64,000 nucleotides of DNA from Pseudomonadales bacterium (lineage in GTDB: Bacteria; Pseudomonadota; Gammaproteobacteria; Pseudomonadales; DC-out160), in assembly GCA_019090455.1 (NCBI GenBank), contig JAHRWA010000030.1:1-64000 (forward strand), read 5' to 3'. The notes beneath the pieces were generated by a model. That model did not search any database. It saw only the letters and a program-made list of their open reading frames with translations, and was not told the origin of the DNA. The translations under genes and the position numbers were made by a program. Shown here piece after piece: positions 29,656-42,244 of the stretch (the first letter of the stretch is position 1; the number at the start of each line of letters is the position of its first letter).

Positions 29656-30441
29656 ATGGCGATATTGCAATACGTTCTACCCATCCTCATTTTTCTAGGC
29701 GCAGTGGGCTGCGCCTTTATCAATATAAAACAAGACAAAGGTCCAATCTTTATTGGGGCCATCGCATTTTTGCTACTGCTTTTTCTCGGCTTCAACCTTT
29801 ACTTAACCGCGAGCACTAGCAGCGAAAAAGAGGATCTCATGGCACAGGTCGACGTAGGGCTTGCCTGGCAAAAACGCAGCGTTGCTAACTTGCAAAGTAT
29901 CCTGGCAACATTAACTCCCGATAGCGACCAAAAAACACAAGAAATAAAGAAACTCGTCAAGCTCGGCTGGACTATCGATAACCCCATGTTTGAAGAGAGC
30001 TTTGCCGCGGATGAGGCTCGCCAAAAACTATTGGCCCTCGCCCCCCCACCCAATCACCCAGTCACTGTTAACAATTTGCCCGCCAACATCAATCCCATCA
30101 TCACCAGACTTGCGATGGAAGAGTTAGGCCACATGATGGCGACACCTGATCCGGAAGGAGAGGAGGATGTTGATTTCGAGGAGGAGGAAGACGAAGAAGA
30201 GGAGGAGGGCTTAAAAATCGCGAATGTAATGTTCTACGGTAAATTGGTGCGTAACTCAGACATAAAACTCATCGCCTACACCCTCATACGATCAGGCGTA
30301 CAATTGAAAATGCTTCGACCCTACAAAAAAGCCACTCGTAAAAATGCTCGTACGGTTGAATTAGACTGGTCAAAAATGTACAAAAACCGAAAGAAAGTAA
30401 CCGTACAAAGCTTGGAAAAAGCCAAGAGCTTTAAACGCTAA
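29656..30441 (+). CDS. Two-TM protein with acidic tract, unknown
   Basis: I do not recognise this 261-residue protein. Two hydrophobic helices form the N-terminus (about residues 5-23 and 30-48), so it is an inner-membrane protein with most of its mass on one side. The soluble part starts with a charged helix, has a Pro-rich turn (LAPPPNHP), then a run of Glu/Asp at about 165-185 that is nearly uninterrupted. A basic C-terminal segment follows (KKATRKNARTVEL and KNRKKVTVQSLEKAK). Acidic and basic halves could pair within or between subunits. The ribosome binding site is weak. It is transcribed toward the minus-strand island genes, from which 75 bp separate it. Confidence 0.6.
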   Translation: MAILQYVLPILIFLGAVGCAFINIKQDKGPIFIGAIAFLLLLFLGFNLYLTASTSSEKEDLMAQVDVGLAWQKRSVANLQSILATLTPDSDQKTQEIKKLVKLGWTIDNPMFEESFAADEARQKLLALAPPPNHPVTVNNLPANINPIITRLAMEELGHMMATPDPEGEEDVDFEEEEDEEEEEGLKIANVMFYGKLVRNSDIKLIAYTLIRSGVQLKMLRPYKKATRKNARTVELDWSKMYKNRKKVTVQSLEKAKSFKR

Positions 30442-30516
30442 AACCGATGCAAACAATCAAAGGAATAGAAACGATACTGGTTATTCTAAATCATTTACCC
30501 TTTAAAACCGTCAAAT

Positions 30517-31209
30517 CTAAGCTAGAGAGCCTTCTACTTTTGCGTCGTAAATTTCCTTATTGTAAGGAAACAGCAAATTAAGAAAAACAATAAAAGAACC
30601 CACGAACTCAGTTAACTCGCCTCTCTTTGGTGACTCCATCATTCCTTCAACAACAACAAGAAGAATGAAATACGCGGCAATATGATAATTTTGGGGGATG
30701 GGGACACCGAAGTTTTCAAAGAACCGTCTTGCCTTTTCATTCTTTCTATAAAGTGGTGTGACAACAAATAAATAGCTCAACAAAATAAGCGCAAATCCAG
30801 TACCAAAGATCATCTTATTAATTTTCTTACCGCCGACCACCATATTATGCAAGTTAGTCTCACTTTGCGCATTATTCGCTTTAAAAAACTCGGAGCTTTC
30901 CACATCAAATAATCGCTGCCCCCATGAGATTTCTTCGCCTGCGCCAAAAAGGAAAAAAAACGTCAACAACCCTGTGACCATCATAAAGGGGAGGCTACGT
31001 TTTCCCTTTAGTTTAACAAACCGACTACCACAAACGACCATACTAGCTAACAATCCTACAACCGTTAACCATTCAATAAAGCCATCTTCAACCACGTATT
31101 TTTCACGATAAAATGCATGATCTGCAAATGAAAAGTAAACGCCTGTGCCAAACAACACTGCCACAACCAATAACACACCTATTTCCACTCGCCCCATCAC
31201 CTTAATCAT
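30517..31209 (-). CDS. Membrane protein with GEEISWGQR motif
   Basis: A 230-residue inner-membrane protein with about five or six helices. The striking feature is a polar motif at a helix end, GAGEEISWGQR (Glu92, Glu93, Trp96, Arg99), followed by NAQSETNLHN (Gln115, Glu117, Asn119, His121). I recall these paired motifs from a widespread family of uncharacterised membrane proteins. Two Glu, an Arg and a His within 30 residues at the membrane interface look like an active site. The spacing EE-x5-R differs from the CAAX-protease motif. The start at 31209 has GGAGG 10 nt upstream. It is the most downstream gene of the minus-strand island. Confidence 0.7.
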   Translation of the reverse strand: MIKVMGRVEIGVLLVVAVLFGTGVYFSFADHAFYREKYVVEDGFIEWLTVVGLLASMVVCGSRFVKLKGKRSLPFMMVTGLLTFFFLFGAGEEISWGQRLFDVESSEFFKANNAQSETNLHNMVVGGKKINKMIFGTGFALILLSYLFVVTPLYRKNEKARRFFENFGVPIPQNYHIAAYFILLVVVEGMMESPKRGELTEFVGSFIVFLNLLFPYNKEIYDAKVEGSLA

Positions 31210-31326
31210 TTAAAAACTGCCTCCACTCATTCAATTGTTATTTCGATTCTTATTCACAGACTCTTGATTCAACGACAGCGATAAAGACAACGCCATCAAA
31301 AATAATAATGACAACATCATCAATTG

Positions 31327-31965
31327 TTACGCCGTATTTAGCACTCTCAATTTCATTAGCTTGGATACGCTACACGAAACCAGATACCCCATAGCGTACA
31401 GTATCAAAAAGGGATCGATTAAGTAGTCCCATACATTATTTGATTCATAGATTCGCAGTTGATAAGCAACAACACTCAGCGATAACCAGATAACGGTCAA
31501 ATAGAAACGAGCCCACCATGCCGCCAAGCAAACTAACAATAAGCCCAACGCAAAGCCTAGATTTCCGTATCCCCAGCCATAAGTATCAACGGCTCCCCAA
31601 CCCAGCGCAAAAGGGTATAACACAAGTGACATTATCACTGTAACCATCAGCATTAGTTGGCGATCCCTCGTATTGGGCAATGATATAACACCCTTAAAAT
31701 CAAAGCCAACAAACAAAATAGAGGCGATTGAAATGGAGCATAACAACAACGTTCCCACACTAAAGTCCCCACTAAACCCTCGGATCAATATCAACAAGGA
31801 TTCCCCGGACACGGGCACTACCAGCGCAATCACTCCCACTATCGCAACACCCCACCGCACCGCTAACGGATATTGACGGCACCAAGACCACCTCAATATC
31901 GCCGCTAAGTAGACGAGTCCACATCCAAAAAGAGCAAAGATCGACACCACTTGATCAGTTATCAT
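31327..31965 (-). CDS. Six-TM membrane protein coupled to sialidase-like gene
   Basis: A 212-residue, very hydrophobic protein with about six transmembrane helices and short loops; no family recognised. Its ATG at 31965 overlaps the TGA of the sialidase-like gene in an ATGA and has AGGGG 8 nt upstream, so translation is coupled and the two products probably act together. Loops are rich in Trp, Tyr and Gly (WGAVDTYGWGYGNLGF), as in proteins handling lipid or glycan substrates, but no catalytic motif is evident. It may be the membrane partner of the sialidase-like protein. Confidence 0.7.
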   Translation of the reverse strand: MITDQVVSIFALFGCGLVYLAAILRWSWCRQYPLAVRWGVAIVGVIALVVPVSGESLLILIRGFSGDFSVGTLLLCSISIASILFVGFDFKGVISLPNTRDRQLMLMVTVIMSLVLYPFALGWGAVDTYGWGYGNLGFALGLLLVCLAAWWARFYLTVIWLSLSVVAYQLRIYESNNVWDYLIDPFLILYAMGYLVSCSVSKLMKLRVLNTA

Positions 31966-33248
31966 TTTAACAACCCCTCTAACCACACATCATTAAACTC
32001 GACATGTTTAATATGAGTTCGCTTCCACGTATATAACATGTGGTAGCTCCCCCCTTTAGATTGAATCAAAGTGGGGTAAGAAAAACGATTAGCACGCATT
32101 TTAGATTCATTCTCAAAATCATGGATCACAGCCCATTGCTGGCCATTATCCTCAGAATACGCGAGAGACAATATATTGCGTTGATCCGGTGAATTATTAA
32201 AGACCATCAGCAGGCTTCCGTCCGCTCTACGCAATGCCGACAAACCGGAATTGGGATTAAACAATGACACCGCCTCGGGTACAACGTTCTCTTTGCTATG
32301 CCTTTGAATCTCTTTTCGTAAAATTCGGTTTAGCTTGGCACTTGCCGAACGCAAAAATACAACTGCGTCGTCTCCACTGACCGGAACGACCAAGGGCTGT
32401 AAAGCCCCCCTCGCCCACCATAATCTTTGTTTCCCTAACAACTCGCCGTTCTTATCGATACGAATTATTTCAGGGAACTTCCCAATAAACTCATGATAAA
32501 CAGGCAAGCCCATAGTCCCATCTTCATAATAGAAAGGTTTACTCTTTACCAAGGTACTAATATTAATAAAGGGAGAGGTCACTATTCTCCGAGACGGCCC
32601 CCAAGTCTGCCCATTATCATCGGAATACATCACGGCAATAGAGCTGCCGGCCCAACCACCCACGGAAACCGTCACATAGAACAACCAAACTCGGCCATAG
32701 GAATCTTTAGTGATAACGGGGTTGCCCAATTTCTTGATGTAACGTGACAAATCCTTCTGCGCCAATTCGCGGGATGCAATCGCATGGCTAGCGCTCCATG
32801 AAGAGAATCCCCGTTGCACAGAATCGGCATTGATAGCAGTGGCGTCCTCACTAATCGAATTTTGACTGCGTGGTTGTGGGGCTTTGTCGTGGAGATTCAA
32901 AGTGGCTTGCATTATGACAGTGTCCCGACTGCCTTCCCGAGTCCCTCCGTACCACACTGCACTCAAAATTCCATTCTCTATTTCTACGACAGAAGCAGAG
33001 TGCACCTCTGCCGTCACTCCATCGGAGACCTGTCGCACACGATATAGACTGGACTGCTCTTTGAACGTATCTTGGGCAGCGGACTTACCTTGGACATTAA
33101 ATGCCGGCGGCGCAGGTAAGCTTGACCATTGAGCAACGAGAGCACCCAATATACCCAGCACAATAACTAGGCCGACATAGGAGCCATATCCTCTAGAGGA
33201 GATAGCTTGCGCTTTTGGTGGCCTGTTAGATTCCACATTCGATGACAT
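31962..33248 (-). CDS. Membrane-anchored sialidase-like (BNR) protein
   Basis: A six-bladed beta-propeller protein of the sialidase/BNR superfamily, anchored by one N-terminal helix (residues about 21-41) with the propeller in the periplasm. Two Asp-boxes are visible (SDDNGQTWG at 209-217 and SEDNGQQWA further on). The N-terminal blade reads AVWYGGTREGSRDTVIM, close to the AVWFGG-REG signature of bacterial exo-sialidase-like proteins. The classical FRIP motif is not obvious, so sialidase activity is not assured; binding or hydrolysis of another acidic sugar is possible. I start at ATG 33248, because the upstream TTG extension runs into tandem repeats. It is coupled to the downstream six-TM gene. 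Confidence 0.8.
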   Translation of the reverse strand: MSSNVESNRPPKAQAISSRGYGSYVGLVIVLGILGALVAQWSSLPAPPAFNVQGKSAAQDTFKEQSSLYRVRQVSDGVTAEVHSASVVEIENGILSAVWYGGTREGSRDTVIMQATLNLHDKAPQPRSQNSISEDATAINADSVQRGFSSWSASHAIASRELAQKDLSRYIKKLGNPVITKDSYGRVWLFYVTVSVGGWAGSSIAVMYSDDNGQTWGPSRRIVTSPFINISTLVKSKPFYYEDGTMGLPVYHEFIGKFPEIIRIDKNGELLGKQRLWWARGALQPLVVPVSGDDAVVFLRSASAKLNRILRKEIQRHSKENVVPEAVSLFNPNSGLSALRRADGSLLMVFNNSPDQRNILSLAYSEDNGQQWAVIHDFENESKMRANRFSYPTLIQSKGGSYHMLYTWKRTHIKHVEFNDVWLEGLLK

Positions 33249-33261
33249 AGGTTTTGTTGAT

Positions 33262-33312
33262 CCCTTAAGTTCCCTGATCAATTAAGTTCTTCCGTCAATT
33301 AAGTTCTTTGGA
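33262..33312. repeat. 17-bp tandem repeat, three copies
   Basis: Three contiguous 17-bp units sharing the core TTAAGTTC lie just upstream of the sialidase-like gene. The second and third match at 13 or more of 17 positions and the first is more degenerate. Different in sequence and period from the 12-bp array 80 bp further on. Confidence 0.75.
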
Positions 33313-36166: not shown

Positions 36167-36186
36167 ATATGCAAAAGGGTTTCCTT

Positions 36187-38535
36187 ATGGCGCAGTCTCA
36201 TCTTTTTTCACGCGTAGGCCAAATGGCACTCACCATCGCGTTAACCCTACTAATCCTGATCTGCGCCGCCAATTTGACCGGATGCCAGCAAGAAGACCCA
36301 AAAGCAAGCATTGATCACCACCTTTATTTAGCCGAAAGTTACGTTAAACAAGGTCAACTAAAAGCCGCCATACTCGAAGCCAGAACCATTCTCAGTTTGG
36401 CACCGGGAAATCCTCGAGCCATTTTCGTCATCGCCAAAACCATGCTCATATCAGGAGATGCCAGATCGGCTGAAAAGAAAATAGCAGAACTTGTAAAAAC
36501 GGATCCTACCAACCCAGACTATGCTTTTTCATTGGTCGATGCATTACTCAAACTAAAACAACAACACTCCGCATCTTTCGAATTAACACGGTATGAAAAA
36601 GCGGGCGGGCAATTAACGGATCAATACTACACATTAATCGGTAGAAGCCACCTCCTGGCTAAAGATTTTGAAAAGGCAAAACAGGGCTTTCAACGTTCAT
36701 TAGAAATCCTCCCAGACAACCCAGACGCTCTCCTGGGTTTGGCTCAAACCGCTCACCAAGAAAACCAACTTGACGAGCGGGATAGCTTCCTTCAAAAGGC
36801 AATAGATAGCTCTCCCGAACATATTGAAACCTGGCTATGGAAAGCAATGACGGCAATGAGCTCGGAAAACTACCCCGATGCAGAAGAGGGGTTTTCTAAC
36901 GCCCTGCTCGAAATGCAACGATTCGATACCATGACGGCAACAAAATACCTAACCCTCAATGGACTAGTGCAGGCACTCATTGCCCAAGGGAAAACTGATG
37001 ATGCGCTTCGCTATTCAGAAACCCTCTCCAATAGTGCTCAAGGGAAATTACAAAGTAGCTTTAAGGATGCCGTCAGCGCATTTCAAACCGGTGATTTTTC
37101 AATAGCCGAAAAAGTATTCCAAGAAATTCTTGAACAGGCTCCAGCCCACGGCGTGACGGGTACAGCACTGGGTATCATAAGTTATTCTCAGGGTGATTTT
37201 GCTGAAGCCGAAAGCTACCTGACTCAAGTGTTAGCAGGTGGCGACAAGGTTCCTGATCAAGCTTATAAACTACTTGCGGTAACCCGTTTAAAATTAGACT
37301 TAGCAGAAGAATGCCTCGATATTATTTCCAATGGACTCAAGGCCCTGGGGGAAGACCCCGACCTCTACTCTATCCAAGGTCTAGCTCATTTAAAGTTAGG
37401 CAATCTGGATGAGTCGCGTAAGTCGCTCAATAAAGCACTCACTATCAAACCCGGACACCTTCCAGCCCAAATCACGATGGCCAACTTACACATCACAGAG
37501 AAAAACTATGATGATGCATTGCAAATCTATAACAAAACCCTTGAAAAAAACCCCAATAGCATGGTTGCCTTAAAAGGCGTTATGGACGCTACCACGGCAC
37601 AAGGCAAGCCTGAAAATGGAATTAAAATTCTTAAAAAACTAAAGAAAAAACATCCCGAAAGTATCAATCCCACTCTCATTCTTAGCGCCTCACACCTGAA
37701 AAACCGAGAATATGACGACGCAATACAGTACGCTCAGCAGGCATCAAAACTAAAACCCGACAATCAAAAAATCAATCATCTTTTAGCGACAACTTACTAC
37801 CTAAAATCCACCAGCCTGATTGCTGAAAAAGACGTCCCCGGCGCATTGAAATTCGTCCGCAAAGCGCATAAAAAATCTCCCAATTCAATCCCCATCCTCC
37901 TCGCCAACATTAAGTTAGAAATGCAATCGAACAACAAAGCGCTAGGCGAGAAAATTGCCCAGAAATTCATTCAAAACAATCCAGAAAATCATCAAGGGTT
38001 TGAAATATTGGGCGACATTCAAATCCGACAATCTCGTTTTATTGAAGCGGTAGAAAACTTGGAAAAAGCATGGGCAATCTCACAAAACCATTTGCTCGGC
38101 ATGAAACTTTTTCGAGCCAAAAACGCCCTACGCCAGGACGATGATTCACTAAAACACCTTCAACAGTGGGCCACCAATAGCGACGATGACCCTGAAAGAC
38201 AATTTACTCTGGCCATGGCGTATCAAGAATCACAACAACCGGCAAAAGCAATAGAACAATACGAGGCCGTATTACAGCGGAAACCCGATCATGTGGTCTC
38301 ACTGAACAATCTAGCATGGTTATATCAAGAAGCCGGTCACGAAGATGCAGAAAGGCTAGCGAAAAAAGCCAGTGAATTGGCCCCAAAAAGTGCAGCTGTC
38401 ATTGATACCTATGGTTGGATACTGGTACTCCAAGACAAAAATGACGCCGGCATTAAAGTACTGAAAAGGGCTTTAGAACTCGCGCCAAAAAACAAGTATA
38501 TAATTCAACATTTAGCAGAGGCTCAAGCGAAATAG
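36187..38535 (+). CDS. prsT: PEP-CTERM system TPR lipoprotein PrsT
   Basis: Large TPR-repeat lipoprotein of the exosortase/PEP-CTERM system, which sorts proteins to the envelope alongside exopolysaccharide production. The signal peptide has a lipobox ending LTGC (Cys33), and the rest is about 20 tandem TPRs, visible as repeated A-x4-P...A pattern (LAPGNPRAIF, LKPDNQKINHL, LAPKSAAVIDTYGWILV). The 782-residue length and the immediate neighbours prsK and prsR identify it as the PrsT family. I chose ATG 36187, with AAGGG 8-9 nt upstream, over ATG 36169. It probably lies in the periplasm or on the inner face of the outer membrane as a scaffold. No exosortase gene lies in the window. Confidence 0.9.
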   Translation: MAQSHLFSRVGQMALTIALTLLILICAANLTGCQQEDPKASIDHHLYLAESYVKQGQLKAAILEARTILSLAPGNPRAIFVIAKTMLISGDARSAEKKIAELVKTDPTNPDYAFSLVDALLKLKQQHSASFELTRYEKAGGQLTDQYYTLIGRSHLLAKDFEKAKQGFQRSLEILPDNPDALLGLAQTAHQENQLDERDSFLQKAIDSSPEHIETWLWKAMTAMSSENYPDAEEGFSNALLEMQRFDTMTATKYLTLNGLVQALIAQGKTDDALRYSETLSNSAQGKLQSSFKDAVSAFQTGDFSIAEKVFQEILEQAPAHGVTGTALGIISYSQGDFAEAESYLTQVLAGGDKVPDQAYKLLAVTRLKLDLAEECLDIISNGLKALGEDPDLYSIQGLAHLKLGNLDESRKSLNKALTIKPGHLPAQITMANLHITEKNYDDALQIYNKTLEKNPNSMVALKGVMDATTAQGKPENGIKILKKLKKKHPESINPTLILSASHLKNREYDDAIQYAQQASKLKPDNQKINHLLATTYYLKSTSLIAEKDVPGALKFVRKAHKKSPNSIPILLANIKLEMQSNNKALGEKIAQKFIQNNPENHQGFEILGDIQIRQSRFIEAVENLEKAWAISQNHLLGMKLFRAKNALRQDDDSLKHLQQWATNSDDDPERQFTLAMAYQESQQPAKAIEQYEAVLQRKPDHVVSLNNLAWLYQEAGHEDAERLAKKASELAPKSAAVIDTYGWILVLQDKNDAGIKVLKRALELAPKNKYIIQHLAEAQAK

Positions 38536-38575
38536 CTATCATCGAAATCGCTTTCAGAGCGAGCAATCAAACACT

Positions 38576-40717
38576 ATGAATATAGTTATCGACCCCTCTA
38601 TCAACTCTGTTAGTCACGCCATCGGGGCGATCACCTATTTCGGCCTTGCTTTCTATTTATTAAAATCTATTAAAGCCAACACATCGGGGCGGCTAATTTT
38701 ATTAGCGGCGCTGATTATGGGGACGTGGAATTTCGTCATTGCCCTTGATTCTTTTTTTATCAACATCGACTTATCCTATTTCAGCAACATCCTTGAAATT
38801 ATTAAAGTGGGCGCATGGATCGCCGTCATCATTCGAATACTTGGTATTCCCAAACAACCCTCGACACTATTGCCTATTTTTAGCGAGCAGAATAATCCAT
38901 TTTATTTAGTTATTTTCACACTCGGTCTGTTTTTAATACTGCTCATCATGGCTGTCACCAAACCACTGCTGCCCGAGAACTCAGCACTATTCAACTTCAA
39001 CGATAATTTCGCGCTAGTGGGTTTCATGTCTCTCTCAATTTGTGGCGCGATGTGGGTGGAACAGATTTTAAGAAACAGCATTGAATCAGCGCTATGGCAT
39101 ATAAAGTTTTTCTGTTTAAGTTTGGCGGCTATTTTCGGCTACGACATCATTTTGTATTCCCACGGTATTTTAGTTTCTGGCATTGACCCACACTTATGGC
39201 AGGCTCGAGGGGTCGTAACGGCTGTACTTGCACCCTTAATCGCATTGGGCACAAGGCGAAACCTAAACCAATCTTCAAATATCAATTTTTCTCACAGTGC
39301 CGTTTTTCATACCGGTACCCTATTAATAATTGGTATCTACTTAATAGTAATGTCCATAGCCGGTTACTATATTCGGATATTTGGCGGCGATTGGGGCTCT
39401 ATCCTGCAAACCCTACTGATTTTTTCCTCTCTAATCGGTTTGATCACTCTCATCTCCTCGGGGTCGATGAGAGCGAAACTCACCGTTTATATCTCGCGGA
39501 ATTTCTTTAGTTATAAATACGATTACCGCAATGAATGGATCAAGCTAACCAATAAACTCTCTCGACCTCACAGCAACCTCTCCTCCTATGAACAAGCCAT
39601 TCGATCTATCGCGGATCTAGTAGAAAGTACAGGTGGAGGTTTATGGTTAGAAGAAAACAAGCACTTTAATTTCTTAGCCAGCGCCAATGTCAAATTGGAA
39701 ACCCCTCCCGACATCAGCCCAGACTCCTCCTTATCATTATTTCTGACAAACCAGGAATGGATCATCGATATCCCTGAATATCGCAGTAATCCCAGCCACT
39801 ATAAAAACTTAATATTAGACCCCTGGTTTATCGATAATAATCGAGCCTGGTTGATCGTACCTCTTATGCTACAGAACCAGTTACTCGGATTCATTTTCTT
39901 AACAGAACCGAGAACAGCAATGCAACTGAATTGGGAAGACACCGATTTACTGAAGGTAGTCGCTCGACAAATTGCAAGCTTTCTGGCCCAAAAAAGAATA
40001 GGAGAAGCTCTTTCTCGTGCGAAACAGTTCGAAGCAGTCAATCAAATGTCGGCCTTTCTCGTTCACGATTTAAAAACTATGATCGCTCAATTGTCTCTCC
40101 TGGTATCCAATGCGGAGAAGCACAAACATAACCCCGTTTTTATCGATGATATGATTAAAACAACAGATCATTCCGTTACAAAGATGAATCATATATTACA
40201 AAAATTGAAAAACAGTAATGGGGAAACTGCCACTGAGGAGTCAAGTGAAACCACCTTAAACGACGCGCCCATGAAATTACAAACAGTGAGTGTTTTAAAA
40301 CTGATACGAGCGGTTCTCAGTACCAAATCACAACACAAGCCCGAACCTTCTTTCACAGACTGTGATCCCAATCTTAGTATTTCAGTAGACCCCGATTTAT
40401 TTTCCAGCGCTTTGGGTCACATATTAAAAAACGCACAAGATGCCACCGATAATGATGGATCAATTCAAATAACAGTTGAAAAATCCGAGCAACAAGTCAG
40501 AATCTTGACCACAGATAATGGGGCAGGCATGGAATCTGATTTCATTAAGAACAACCTTTTCCGCCCTTTCGATAGCACTAAAGGACTTGTGGGCATGGGT
40601 ATCGGCGCCTTTCAAAGCCGAGAGTATTGTCGAAATATGGGAGGTGATTTAACTGTCACCAGTGAGCCCCAAAGAGGAGCTTGCTTCTGCATGACGTTTC
40701 CTGAAGCAAGCGACTAG
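38576..40717 (+). CDS. prsK: PEP-CTERM system sensor kinase PrsK
   Basis: Membrane histidine kinase paired with PrsR. The first 300 residues contain about eight or nine transmembrane helices, a GAF domain follows at about 340-480, and the kinase core carries the H-box FLVHDLKTMIAQLSLL with the phospho-acceptor His497. The N-box ILKNAQDATD, G1 box TDNGAGM and G2 box VGMGIGAFQSREYC complete an active ATP-binding domain. The length of 713 and the H-box wording HDLK are typical of the PrsK family. It follows prsT after 40 bp. The signal sensed by the membrane part is unknown. Confidence 0.93.
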   Translation: MNIVIDPSINSVSHAIGAITYFGLAFYLLKSIKANTSGRLILLAALIMGTWNFVIALDSFFINIDLSYFSNILEIIKVGAWIAVIIRILGIPKQPSTLLPIFSEQNNPFYLVIFTLGLFLILLIMAVTKPLLPENSALFNFNDNFALVGFMSLSICGAMWVEQILRNSIESALWHIKFFCLSLAAIFGYDIILYSHGILVSGIDPHLWQARGVVTAVLAPLIALGTRRNLNQSSNINFSHSAVFHTGTLLIIGIYLIVMSIAGYYIRIFGGDWGSILQTLLIFSSLIGLITLISSGSMRAKLTVYISRNFFSYKYDYRNEWIKLTNKLSRPHSNLSSYEQAIRSIADLVESTGGGLWLEENKHFNFLASANVKLETPPDISPDSSLSLFLTNQEWIIDIPEYRSNPSHYKNLILDPWFIDNNRAWLIVPLMLQNQLLGFIFLTEPRTAMQLNWEDTDLLKVVARQIASFLAQKRIGEALSRAKQFEAVNQMSAFLVHDLKTMIAQLSLLVSNAEKHKHNPVFIDDMIKTTDHSVTKMNHILQKLKNSNGETATEESSETTLNDAPMKLQTVSVLKLIRAVLSTKSQHKPEPSFTDCDPNLSISVDPDLFSSALGHILKNAQDATDNDGSIQITVEKSEQQVRILTTDNGAGMESDFIKNNLFRPFDSTKGLVGMGIGAFQSREYCRNMGGDLTVTSEPQRGACFCMTFPEASD

Positions 40718-40719
40718 TG

Positions 40720-40791
40720 CAACACCTAGAACGATTACAATACCTAGTACGAGTACAATACGAAGTACTAGTAAAACAGGTACAACTAGAG
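40720..40791. repeat. 18-bp tandem repeat, four copies, before prsR
   Basis: Four 18-bp units, beginning CAACACCTAGAACGATTA, start two bases past the prsK stop codon and run toward prsR. The period and copy number equal those of the array before prsT, and the third unit contains the same AGTACTA core, but the rest of the sequence differs. Confidence 0.8.
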
Positions 40792-40882
40792 CCCATTGTG
40801 AACCGGACCAATTTTCCAATTTGAATAAGTCATATCATTAGAACAAATCATCAAATAAAATTTTTTTTGACCGAGGCCAGTT

Positions 40883-42244
40883 TTGAAAGACAAGAACCGA
40901 ACTTTATTAATTGTGGAAGATGACCCTGGATTACAAAGCCAATTACGGTGGTGCTTTGATGAATCTATTACCATAGTCACTGCAGAAGATAAAAAATCAG
41001 CCACTGCTCATATTCGACGAATTGAACCACAGGTCATCACGCTCGATTTAGGGCTACCACCGGACCCAGGTGGCTCCTCCGTGGGGTTTGAAATTCTTCA
41101 AGAAGCAATCACGCTAACACCTAAAGCCAAAATCATTATCATTACTGGTCGCGAAGAAAAAGAACATGCTGTCAGGGCCATTGGGATGGGGGCTTATGAT
41201 TTTTATCAAAAACCTATCGACGGAGATTTATTACGATTTGTAGTAGAACGCGCATTTCGGTTACATGAACTCGAAACTGAAATCACCGCCTATGCCCAAT
41301 CCCAACAAACTGCATTAGGCGGCATTATTGCTTCCAGTGAACAGATGCTAACAGCCTGCAGAACCATTGAGAAAGTGGCACCCACCGATCTCACAACTCT
41401 GATCTTAGGTGATACCGGAACCGGCAAAGAACTCTTTGCGCAGGCTCTTCATACCCATAGTGAGAGAAGCGAAGGCAGCTTCAATGCCATTAACTGTGCT
41501 GCGATTCCCGATGCACTACTGGAAAGCGAATTATTTGGATACGAGAAAGGGGCATTTACAGGCGCGGTAAAACAGAAAATTGGCAAAATTGAAGCCGCTA
41601 ATGGCGGTACACTTTTTCTAGATGAAATCGGCGATATGCCACTGAGCCTTCAAGCTAAACTGCTGCGATTTTTGCAAGAGCGAACGGTGGAACGCTTAGG
41701 CGGGCACAAATCGATACCTGTGGATGTGCGAGTCGTATGCGCAACCCACCGTGATTTGTCAGAGATGATAACAGAAGCCTCCTTTCGTGAAGATTTATTC
41801 TATCGTATCAGCGAAATGACTATCAACGTACCGCCACTACGAGAAAGAGAAGGTGATGCGGTATTACTAGCCCATGCTTTTATGGAGAAATATTGCGAAC
41901 AACACAAGCGACAACTATCTGGCTTTACGGAAGAAGCCATAGCGGCCTTGGAGTCCTACCGTTGGCCAGGTAACGTCAGAGAATTGGAGAACAAGATCAA
42001 ACGAGCCACCATTATGGCCGATGGAAATAAAATTAATGCTCTCGATCTTGAAATAAAATTAGATGAATCGGAAGAAATCGAACCACTTAATTTACGCGAA
42101 GTTCGAGATCGTGCAGAAAAACAAGCCGTTATGAGAGCACTCACCAATAGCAAGAATAATGTCACCCAAGCCGCTAGAATGCTGGGCATTACCCGCCCGA
42201 CACTGTACAACCTGCTAAGTAAATTTAACATCAACGTTGAATAA
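40883..42244 (+). CDS. prsR: PEP-CTERM response regulator PrsR
   Basis: Sigma-54-dependent transcriptional activator that is the cognate regulator of PrsK and switches on PEP-CTERM protein genes. The receiver domain has the acidic pocket VEDD (residues 11-14) and phospho-acceptor Asp55 in ITLDLGLPP. The AAA+ domain has Walker A GDTGTGKE near 176-183 and the RpoN-contact loop GAFTGA at 223-228. A Fis-type HTH ([20 protein letters not shown]) closes the 453-residue protein. It starts at TTG 40883 with GAGG 7 nt upstream. A 165-bp spacer with an 18-bp repeat separates it from prsK, so it may also have its own promoter. Confidence 0.95.

What the first reader, a model, noticed from the sequence alone, without database searches (positions are those of the whole stretch)
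29656..33248. Membrane/glycan island between dapC and dapE
Four genes interrupt a stretch that otherwise holds conserved diaminopimelate and housekeeping genes: a two-TM protein with a Glu/Asp tract, a membrane protein with the GEEISWGQR motif, a six-TM protein, and a membrane-anchored sialidase-like propeller. The last two overlap by ATGA. All are membrane-bound and none is a known cytosolic enzyme. The combination suggests an uncharacterised envelope system that trims or recognises a surface glycan, possibly linked to the exopolysaccharide system implied by prsTKR.
Basis: partly seen in the sequence, partly recalled or inferred. Interest (0 to 1): 0.6.

Follow-up and report, generated by a model that had tools for sequence, protein, structure and literature searches.

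The report
Membrane-anchored sialidase-fold protein with membrane partner
A membrane-anchored protein with the shape of a sialidase is almost always encoded next to one uncharacterised membrane protein, and sometimes a second, in bacteria of several phyla, which points to an undescribed machine that handles a sugar of the cell envelope.

Summary
Real and more than chance, but the grouping needs correcting. The system is a minus-strand unit of three genes (30517-33248): a membrane-anchored sialidase-fold propeller, a small multi-TM protein whose start overlaps the propeller's stop (ATGA), and the GEEISWGQR membrane protein. The plus-strand acidic two-TM gene (29656-30441) is not part of it: its homologue stands directly before dapE, without the trio, in 5 of 6 loci examined outside the genus. 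Propeller and multi-TM genes are adjacent in 79 of the 80 loci kept of 422 found in public genomes; the miss is a contig end. The GEEISWGQR protein is an optional third member, fused to the multi-TM protein in some genomes. The propeller model matches solved sialidases at Z 36, but its clade has a fixed His and Gln where sialidases probably have an Arg and a Glu. In iron-oxidiser relatives the pair follows heptosyltransferase-like, GtrA and ArnT-like genes; in Pseudomonas it precedes an LTA-synthase-like gene. Best reading: a complex at the periplasmic face of the inner membrane that handles a sugar of an envelope glycolipid or glycan. Substrate and catalysis are unproven. The prsTKR link is not supported.

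The parts
31962..33248 (-). Membrane-anchored sialidase-fold propeller (BNR_2), 428 aa; one N-terminal TM helix (about residues 20-42), then a propeller read as periplasmic. An in-frame TTG start at 33281 is also possible.
   Evidence: 36 columns invariant over the window protein and 27 relatives
31327..31965 (-). Multi-TM partner (212 aa from the ATG at 31965; seven TM helices in my reading), no Pfam or NCBIfam family; motifs YP...G....D.Y..G and S.N.W.Y..D fixed in the 32 rows aligned, on loops read as periplasmic; ATGA overlap with the propeller gene.
30517..31209 (-). GEEISWGQR membrane protein (230 aa), optional third member; naturally fused to the multi-TM partner in some genomes. Here 117 nt separate it from the multi-TM gene.
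29656..30441 (+). Acidic two-TM protein, NOT part of the system: resident of the interval before dapE in genomes without the trio there; listed because the finding included it.

Best explanation
The three minus-strand genes encode an inner-membrane complex that works at the periplasmic face. The propeller is tethered by one TM helix and probably binds, and may cleave or transfer, one sugar of an envelope glycolipid or glycan (LPS core or lipid A, or an undecaprenyl-linked sugar). The multi-TM partner, and where present the GEEISWGQR protein, hold or deliver the lipid-linked substrate through conserved polar residues on their periplasmic loops. Shown here: gene linkage, fusion, propeller fold (predicted model) and conservation. 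Inferred: membrane topology, complex formation, the substrate class, and that the propeller is catalytic.
For: (1) Linkage: multi-TM gene adjacent on the same strand in 79 of 80 named loci (the best 80 of 422 found) and 33 of 36 loci of the order. Of the three misses in the order, L066 is a contig end, L110 has a divergent membrane protein in the same place whose relative in L112 does match, and L102 (G239) has the gene on another contig, fused to a GEEISWGQR-family protein. Overlaps or gaps of a few bases are usual. Control: the 5 loci that score above 100 bits with the propeller profile but are other BNR_2 proteins (4 distinct genes) have no multi-TM match in the 0.7-1.4 kb held behind them. 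(2) Distances of the two proteins correlate at r 0.92 over 106 loci, 0 of 2000 permutations as high; shared descent alone would also give this. (3) Natural fusions of the two membrane proteins: beside the propeller gene in L178, L206 and L207, and in G239. (4) Multi-TM loops with the conserved motifs are more acidic and poorer in K+R (last loop 0.38 K+R, 3.06 D+E) than the alternate loops (for example 1.94 and 0.12), 32 rows. (5) A PMT-family (weakly ArnT-like) gene directly upstream in 37 of 80 named loci, GT9 in 30, GtrA in 18; an LTA-synthase-like gene within 4 kb in 17 of 80, 9 of them among the 10 Pseudomonas loci. (6) Sialidase fold, Z 36.
Against: No activity or substrate is shown. The window's own genome has no PF02366 match (PMT_2 was not searched); its two GtrA genes over cut-off lie on other contigs. 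The PMT neighbours come almost all from one related group (Gallionellaceae/Nitrosomonadales), so they are few independent events; 'ArnT-like' and 'LTA-synthase-like' rest on NCBIfam scores far below their cut-offs (48 of 567 and 69 of 970 bits), the firm labels being PMT and Sulfatase. The clade seems to lack the usual sialidase Glu and one Arg, so it may not be a hydrolase. The GEEISWGQR half of the G239 fusion lacks the motif itself (sequence), and the family also occurs without the propeller. Conserved motifs of the multi-TM protein are changed in the most divergent relatives, such as L111. The membrane domains match no solved fold at E 0.001. The charge of the multi-TM C-terminus was uninformative. 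Topology and complex formation were not tested.
Confidence: 0.55

Rival explanations
1. The propeller is a non-catalytic glycan-binding or sensing subunit; the enzyme or transporter activity lies in the multi-TM and GEEISWGQR proteins, whose conserved polar residues form the active site.
For: The site of the catalytic Glu is Gln in this clade and the first Arg appears to be His (both alignments weak there). The GEEISWGQR family also occurs without the propeller (G033 and more distant members). Its fixed residues (EDG..E, GEE.SWGQR, N.Q.E..HN) look like an active site.
Against: The clade keeps Asp109, Arg300, Arg357, Tyr391 and a further Glu253, all invariant in the 28 rows of A3 (Arg357 at 90% or more in the 24 rows of A1), which suggests retained chemistry.
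Confidence: 0.25
2. It is an ordinary exosialidase (or one for Kdn or other nonulosonic acids) anchored in the envelope.
For: Closest solved folds are GH33 sialidases, with Kdnases also listed.
Against: The clade has a fixed His and a fixed Gln where the first Arg and the Glu are expected (not settled); a linked membrane partner and LPS-type neighbours are not features I know of catabolic sialidases (recall).
Confidence: 0.1
3. The system serves the PEP-CTERM/exosortase exopolysaccharide pathway represented by prsTKR nearby.
For: prsT, prsK and prsR lie at 36169-42244; the genome has an exosortase on another contig; exosortase is somewhat commoner among propeller genomes (19 of 35 against 88 of 258; hand count).
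Against: 16 of 35 propeller genomes have no exosortase match; the comparison is not corrected for kinship; none of the recurrent neighbour groups that I identified is an exosortase or prs gene, though not every neighbour was identified.
Confidence: 0.07

Closest known systems
GH33 sialidases (e.g. PDB 1eur, 2bf6)
   Same: Sialidase propeller fold, Asp-boxes, and Arg300, Arg357 and Tyr391 aligned with sialidase residues that I recall as catalytic (the alignment is weak).
   Different: Fixed His and Gln where the first Arg and the catalytic Glu are expected (rough alignment); N-terminal membrane anchor; linked membrane partner gene.
BNR_2 proteins of the 'predicted neuraminidase' type (COG4692, label recalled)
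   Same: L224, L226 and L232 share His83, Glu105, Asp109, Trp199, Gln284, Arg300, Arg357 and Tyr391; Glu253 is shared by L224 and L226, while L232 has Asp there.
   Different: Those paralogues had no multi-TM match in the flank held.
GtrA plus PMT/ArnT-type glycosylation genes
   Same: In Gallionellaceae and relatives the pair sits directly behind GT9, GtrA and PMT-family genes.
   Different: I know of no such cassette with a sialidase-fold protein and this multi-TM family (recall; none in the listings, some of them capped).
LTA synthase-like members of the Sulfatase family (PF00884)
   Same: Next to the pair in Pseudomonas and some other groups.
   Different: A neighbour, not a homologue of any part.

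Membership tests
GH33 sialidase | Sialidase propeller fold | tested here: met
   Model m7b95a2adbac7: Z 36.4, rmsd 2.4-2.5, 315 residues against 1w8o/1eus; Foldseek E 1.8e-15 to 1eur
GH33 sialidase | Tyr nucleophile (identity recalled) | tested here: met
   Tyr391 lies on the sialidase Tyr in the alignment (weak per-stretch score) and is invariant in 28 rows
GH33 sialidase | Asp acid/base (identity recalled) | tested here: inconclusive
   Asp109 is invariant in 28 rows and stands where the motif order puts it, but no printed alignment to a solved sialidase covers it
GH33 sialidase | Arg triad that binds the carboxylate | tested here: inconclusive
   Arg300 and Arg357 align with sialidase Arg; at the first site the clade has a fixed His83, not covered by an alignment to a solved sialidase
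GH33 sialidase | Catalytic Glu paired with the Tyr | tested here: inconclusive
   The region aligned with the sialidase Glu holds no conserved Glu; Gln284 is fixed in the clade where 11 of 15 other BNR_2 rows (some repeats) have Glu (rough alignment)
GH33 sialidase | Release of sialic acid | not testable with these tools
   needs enzyme assay
BNR_2 (PF13088) | Score above the curated cut-off | tested here: met
   216.7 bits against 31.4
O-antigen ligase Wzy_C (considered for the GEEISWGQR protein) | Score above the curated cut-off | tested here: not met
   14.7 bits against 31.7
Anti-phage defence proteins (PADLOC) | Match to a defence family | tested here: not met
   none for the three window proteins at E 0.1; one of the two relatives tested, L197, had a chance-level match (E 0.039)

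The most novel reading that the evidence does not exclude
A sialidase-superfamily enzyme with a rebuilt active site (His for the first Arg, Gln for the catalytic Glu, a further fixed Glu253) forms a complex with one or two undescribed membrane protein families and removes or transfers a sugar on an undecaprenyl-linked or LPS glycan at the periplasmic face: a new step in envelope glycan biogenesis shared by several phyla.
Probability: 0.3. Interest if true: 0.8.

Novelty: new variant of a known kind. Interest (0 to 1): 0.55.

Why it matters
The propeller carries a familiar sialidase fold and BNR_2 label, which hides a tightly conserved unit with one or two membrane protein families that no Pfam or NCBIfam model matched. 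One peptide pattern found 422 places encoding a relative of the propeller in a collection of 84,980 species genomes; the partner was checked in the best 80. If the system handles an envelope sugar, it would add an unknown step to LPS or periplasmic glycan assembly in Pseudomonas, iron oxidisers and many uncultured bacteria. A deletion in a harmless soil Pseudomonas would make it directly testable.

Tried and rejected
Four-gene island: rejected, because the acidic two-TM gene stands directly before dapE without the trio in L259-L263 and lies on other contigs than the propeller in the four genomes outside the genus that hold both (G032, weak match, G150, G273, G292). prsTKR/exosortase link: weak and not obligate. 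Horizontal import by composition: no signal. Known fold for the membrane proteins: nothing convincing. Foldseek gave 0 matches at E 0.001 or better; VIA-align gave only middling receptor and rhodopsin rows, best Z 7.0, nearly all for the GEEISWGQR half, read as a common arrangement; an absent family is not excluded, and the multi-TM half was barely tested. Weak Pfam hits of the membrane proteins (Wzy_C for the GEEISWGQR protein; YfbU, GtrII and others for the acidic two-TM protein) are below cut-off. Defence system: no PADLOC match in the window proteins. Promoter and terminator scans gave no more than chance. Literature: (search listings only, no paper read) showed nothing on the pair; one search listed 15 of 7,115 papers and one search listed 10 of 47, and two listed papers that contain the term COG4692 were not opened. 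The catalytic-site equivalence could not be finished: the printed alignments to solved sialidases do not reach the first Arg, and only 1 of the 30 BNR_2 loci extracted for comparison (4 of them the known propellers) had a canonical RIP motif (L243, left out of the alignment for its length).
Full report
What is there. Three lie on the minus strand in the order propeller (31962-33248), multi-TM (31327-31965), GEEISWGQR protein (30517-31209). The first two overlap by ATGA. The fourth, an acidic two-TM protein (29656-30441), is on the plus strand.

The fourth gene is a bystander. It has matches in 18 of 293 genomes of the order. Of six loci examined outside the genus, five (L259-L263, all of one family) have it 83-160 nt before dapE with no trio between; three of these also show a partial dapC match at the locus edge. 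The sixth, L258, has no dapE in the stretch held. In the four genomes outside the genus that have both this gene and the propeller gene, they are on different contigs; fragmented assemblies make this weak on its own. So the trio probably entered between this gene and dapE in the window's genus; loss elsewhere is not excluded. The one same-genus genome, G001, has the same layout. Composition shows no recent import.

The pair is tightly linked. In 293 genomes of the order, 35 have the propeller and 30 the multi-TM protein, all 30 among the 35. A scan of 84,980 species genomes with one peptide pattern confirmed 422 relatives of the propeller, of which the best 80 were kept. With profile searches, 79 of these 80 and 33 of 36 loci of the order (34 genomes, two of them with two contigs) have the multi-TM gene next to the propeller gene on the same strand. 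The miss among named loci (L199) ends 20 bases after the gene. Of the misses in the order, L066 is a contig end, L110 has a divergent membrane protein in the same place, and L102 (G239) has the multi-TM gene elsewhere, fused to a GEEISWGQR-family protein. One more locus, L103, holds that fusion and no propeller and was left out of the 36. Record titles of the named loci cover Proteobacteria, Acidobacteria, Opitutaceae, Planctomycetaceae and Candidatus Troglogloeales; most are metagenome-assembled, and some species titles look wrong. As a control, BNR_2 genes of four of these genomes were fetched. Nine loci scored above 100 bits with the propeller profile; four are the propellers already known, with the partner; the other five (four distinct genes) had no multi-TM match in the 0.7-1.4 kb held behind them. 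Pairwise distances of the two proteins correlate at r 0.92 over 106 loci (0 of 2000 permutations as high; 0.76 for distant pairs; the nearest multi-TM relative is among the three nearest propellers in 85 of 106). Vertical descent alone could give this.

The third gene is optional: a GEEISWGQR-family match lies within 1.5 kb behind the propeller in 9 of 80 named and 7 of 36 order loci, four of them in both sets. It is fused to the multi-TM protein behind the propeller in L178, L206 and L207, and in G239, where the motif itself is lost. The family is wider: G033 has a close copy without the propeller, and more distant relatives occur in six further genomes. No Pfam or NCBIfam model matched either membrane family above cut-off.

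Structure. The propeller model (mean pLDDT 87) has one N-terminal TM helix and a propeller that matches Micromonospora sialidase at Z 36.4. In a weak profile alignment to a solved sialidase, Arg300, Arg357 and Tyr391 fall on residues that I recall as catalytic. Asp109 sits where the acid/base Asp is expected, without a printed alignment. His83, Glu253 and Gln284 are invariant in the 28 rows of A3 and the 24 of A1 and largely shared with paralogues of the same type, but not with most other BNR_2 rows. So 'His for Arg' and 'Gln for Glu' are likely rather than shown. The fused membrane protein model (pLDDT 88, pTM 0.76) has no convincing relative among solved structures. Conserved residues of the multi-TM part (Y104 P105 G109 D114 Y116 G119 S162 N164 W166 Y168 D171, 32 of 32 rows; some are changed in divergent relatives not in this set, such as L111) and of the GEEISWGQR part (including E278 E279 S281 W282 G283 Q284 R285 N299 Q301 E303 H307 N308, 9 of 9 rows) sit at helix ends and loops that the charge pattern puts outside the cytoplasm.

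Neighbours. In Gallionellaceae and relatives the order is GT9, GtrA, PMT family (weakly ArnT-like), propeller, multi-TM. Counts within 4 kb in the 80 named loci, by sequence cluster and so probably low: PMT 37 (all same strand and upstream, 0-27 nt in 36, 151 nt in one), GT9 30 (29 same strand), GtrA 18, LTA-synthase-like 17 (13 same strand), MFS 14. These counts are dominated by one related group. In 9 of 10 Pseudomonas loci the pair is followed by an LTA-synthase-like gene; in four betaproteobacterial loci (L148, L154, L163, L165) a similar gene precedes it. In the order, 14 loci have a convergent sodium/solute symporter gene behind the pair. The window genome has one BNR_2 gene, two GtrA genes over cut-off on other contigs, and no PF02366 match, so the PMT partner is not universal.

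Reading. A periplasmic-face inner-membrane complex that handles an envelope sugar is the best fit; substrate, direction and catalysis are inferred. The main rival is a non-catalytic propeller that presents a glycan to membrane-embedded enzymes. The prsTKR link is not supported: 19 of 35 propeller genomes have an exosortase match against 88 of 258 others (hand count), uncorrected for kinship. No paper on the pair was seen in the listings, some of them capped; no paper was opened.

Noticed in passing
36169-42244 (+): prsT, prsK and prsR of the XrtA/PEP-CTERM system are confirmed by NCBIfam; an exosortase lies on another contig, G000:C103:35957-36706.
   Followed up: partly
L264 1728-2399; L127 1495-2181: Genome G033 has a GEEISWGQR protein but no propeller or multi-TM match; it stands close to the end of glnD, so the glnD/dap region carries this gene in more than one lineage.
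   Followed up: partly
L131, L133, L134, L135, L136, L137, L139: Distant relatives of the GEEISWGQR protein (226-485 aa) occur in other contexts; EE(I/V)SWGQ followed by N.Q.E.(N).HN marks a wider undescribed membrane family.
   Followed up: no
L121 and L122 (G001:C195 and C186): The same-genus genome shows the trio twice, at the ends of two contigs with slightly different letters: probably one locus split by strain variation (contamination estimate 6).
   Followed up: no
L063, L093, L095-L099, L101, L104-L108, L120: A sodium/solute symporter (SSF) gene stands convergent behind the pair in 14 loci of the order; its substrate might hint at a released sugar.
   Followed up: no
L145, L152, L203: Metagenome-assembled records titled Bordetella parapertussis or Klebsiella pneumoniae look misnamed; L152's contig has the length of G032:C12, a member of the window's order.
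   Followed up: no
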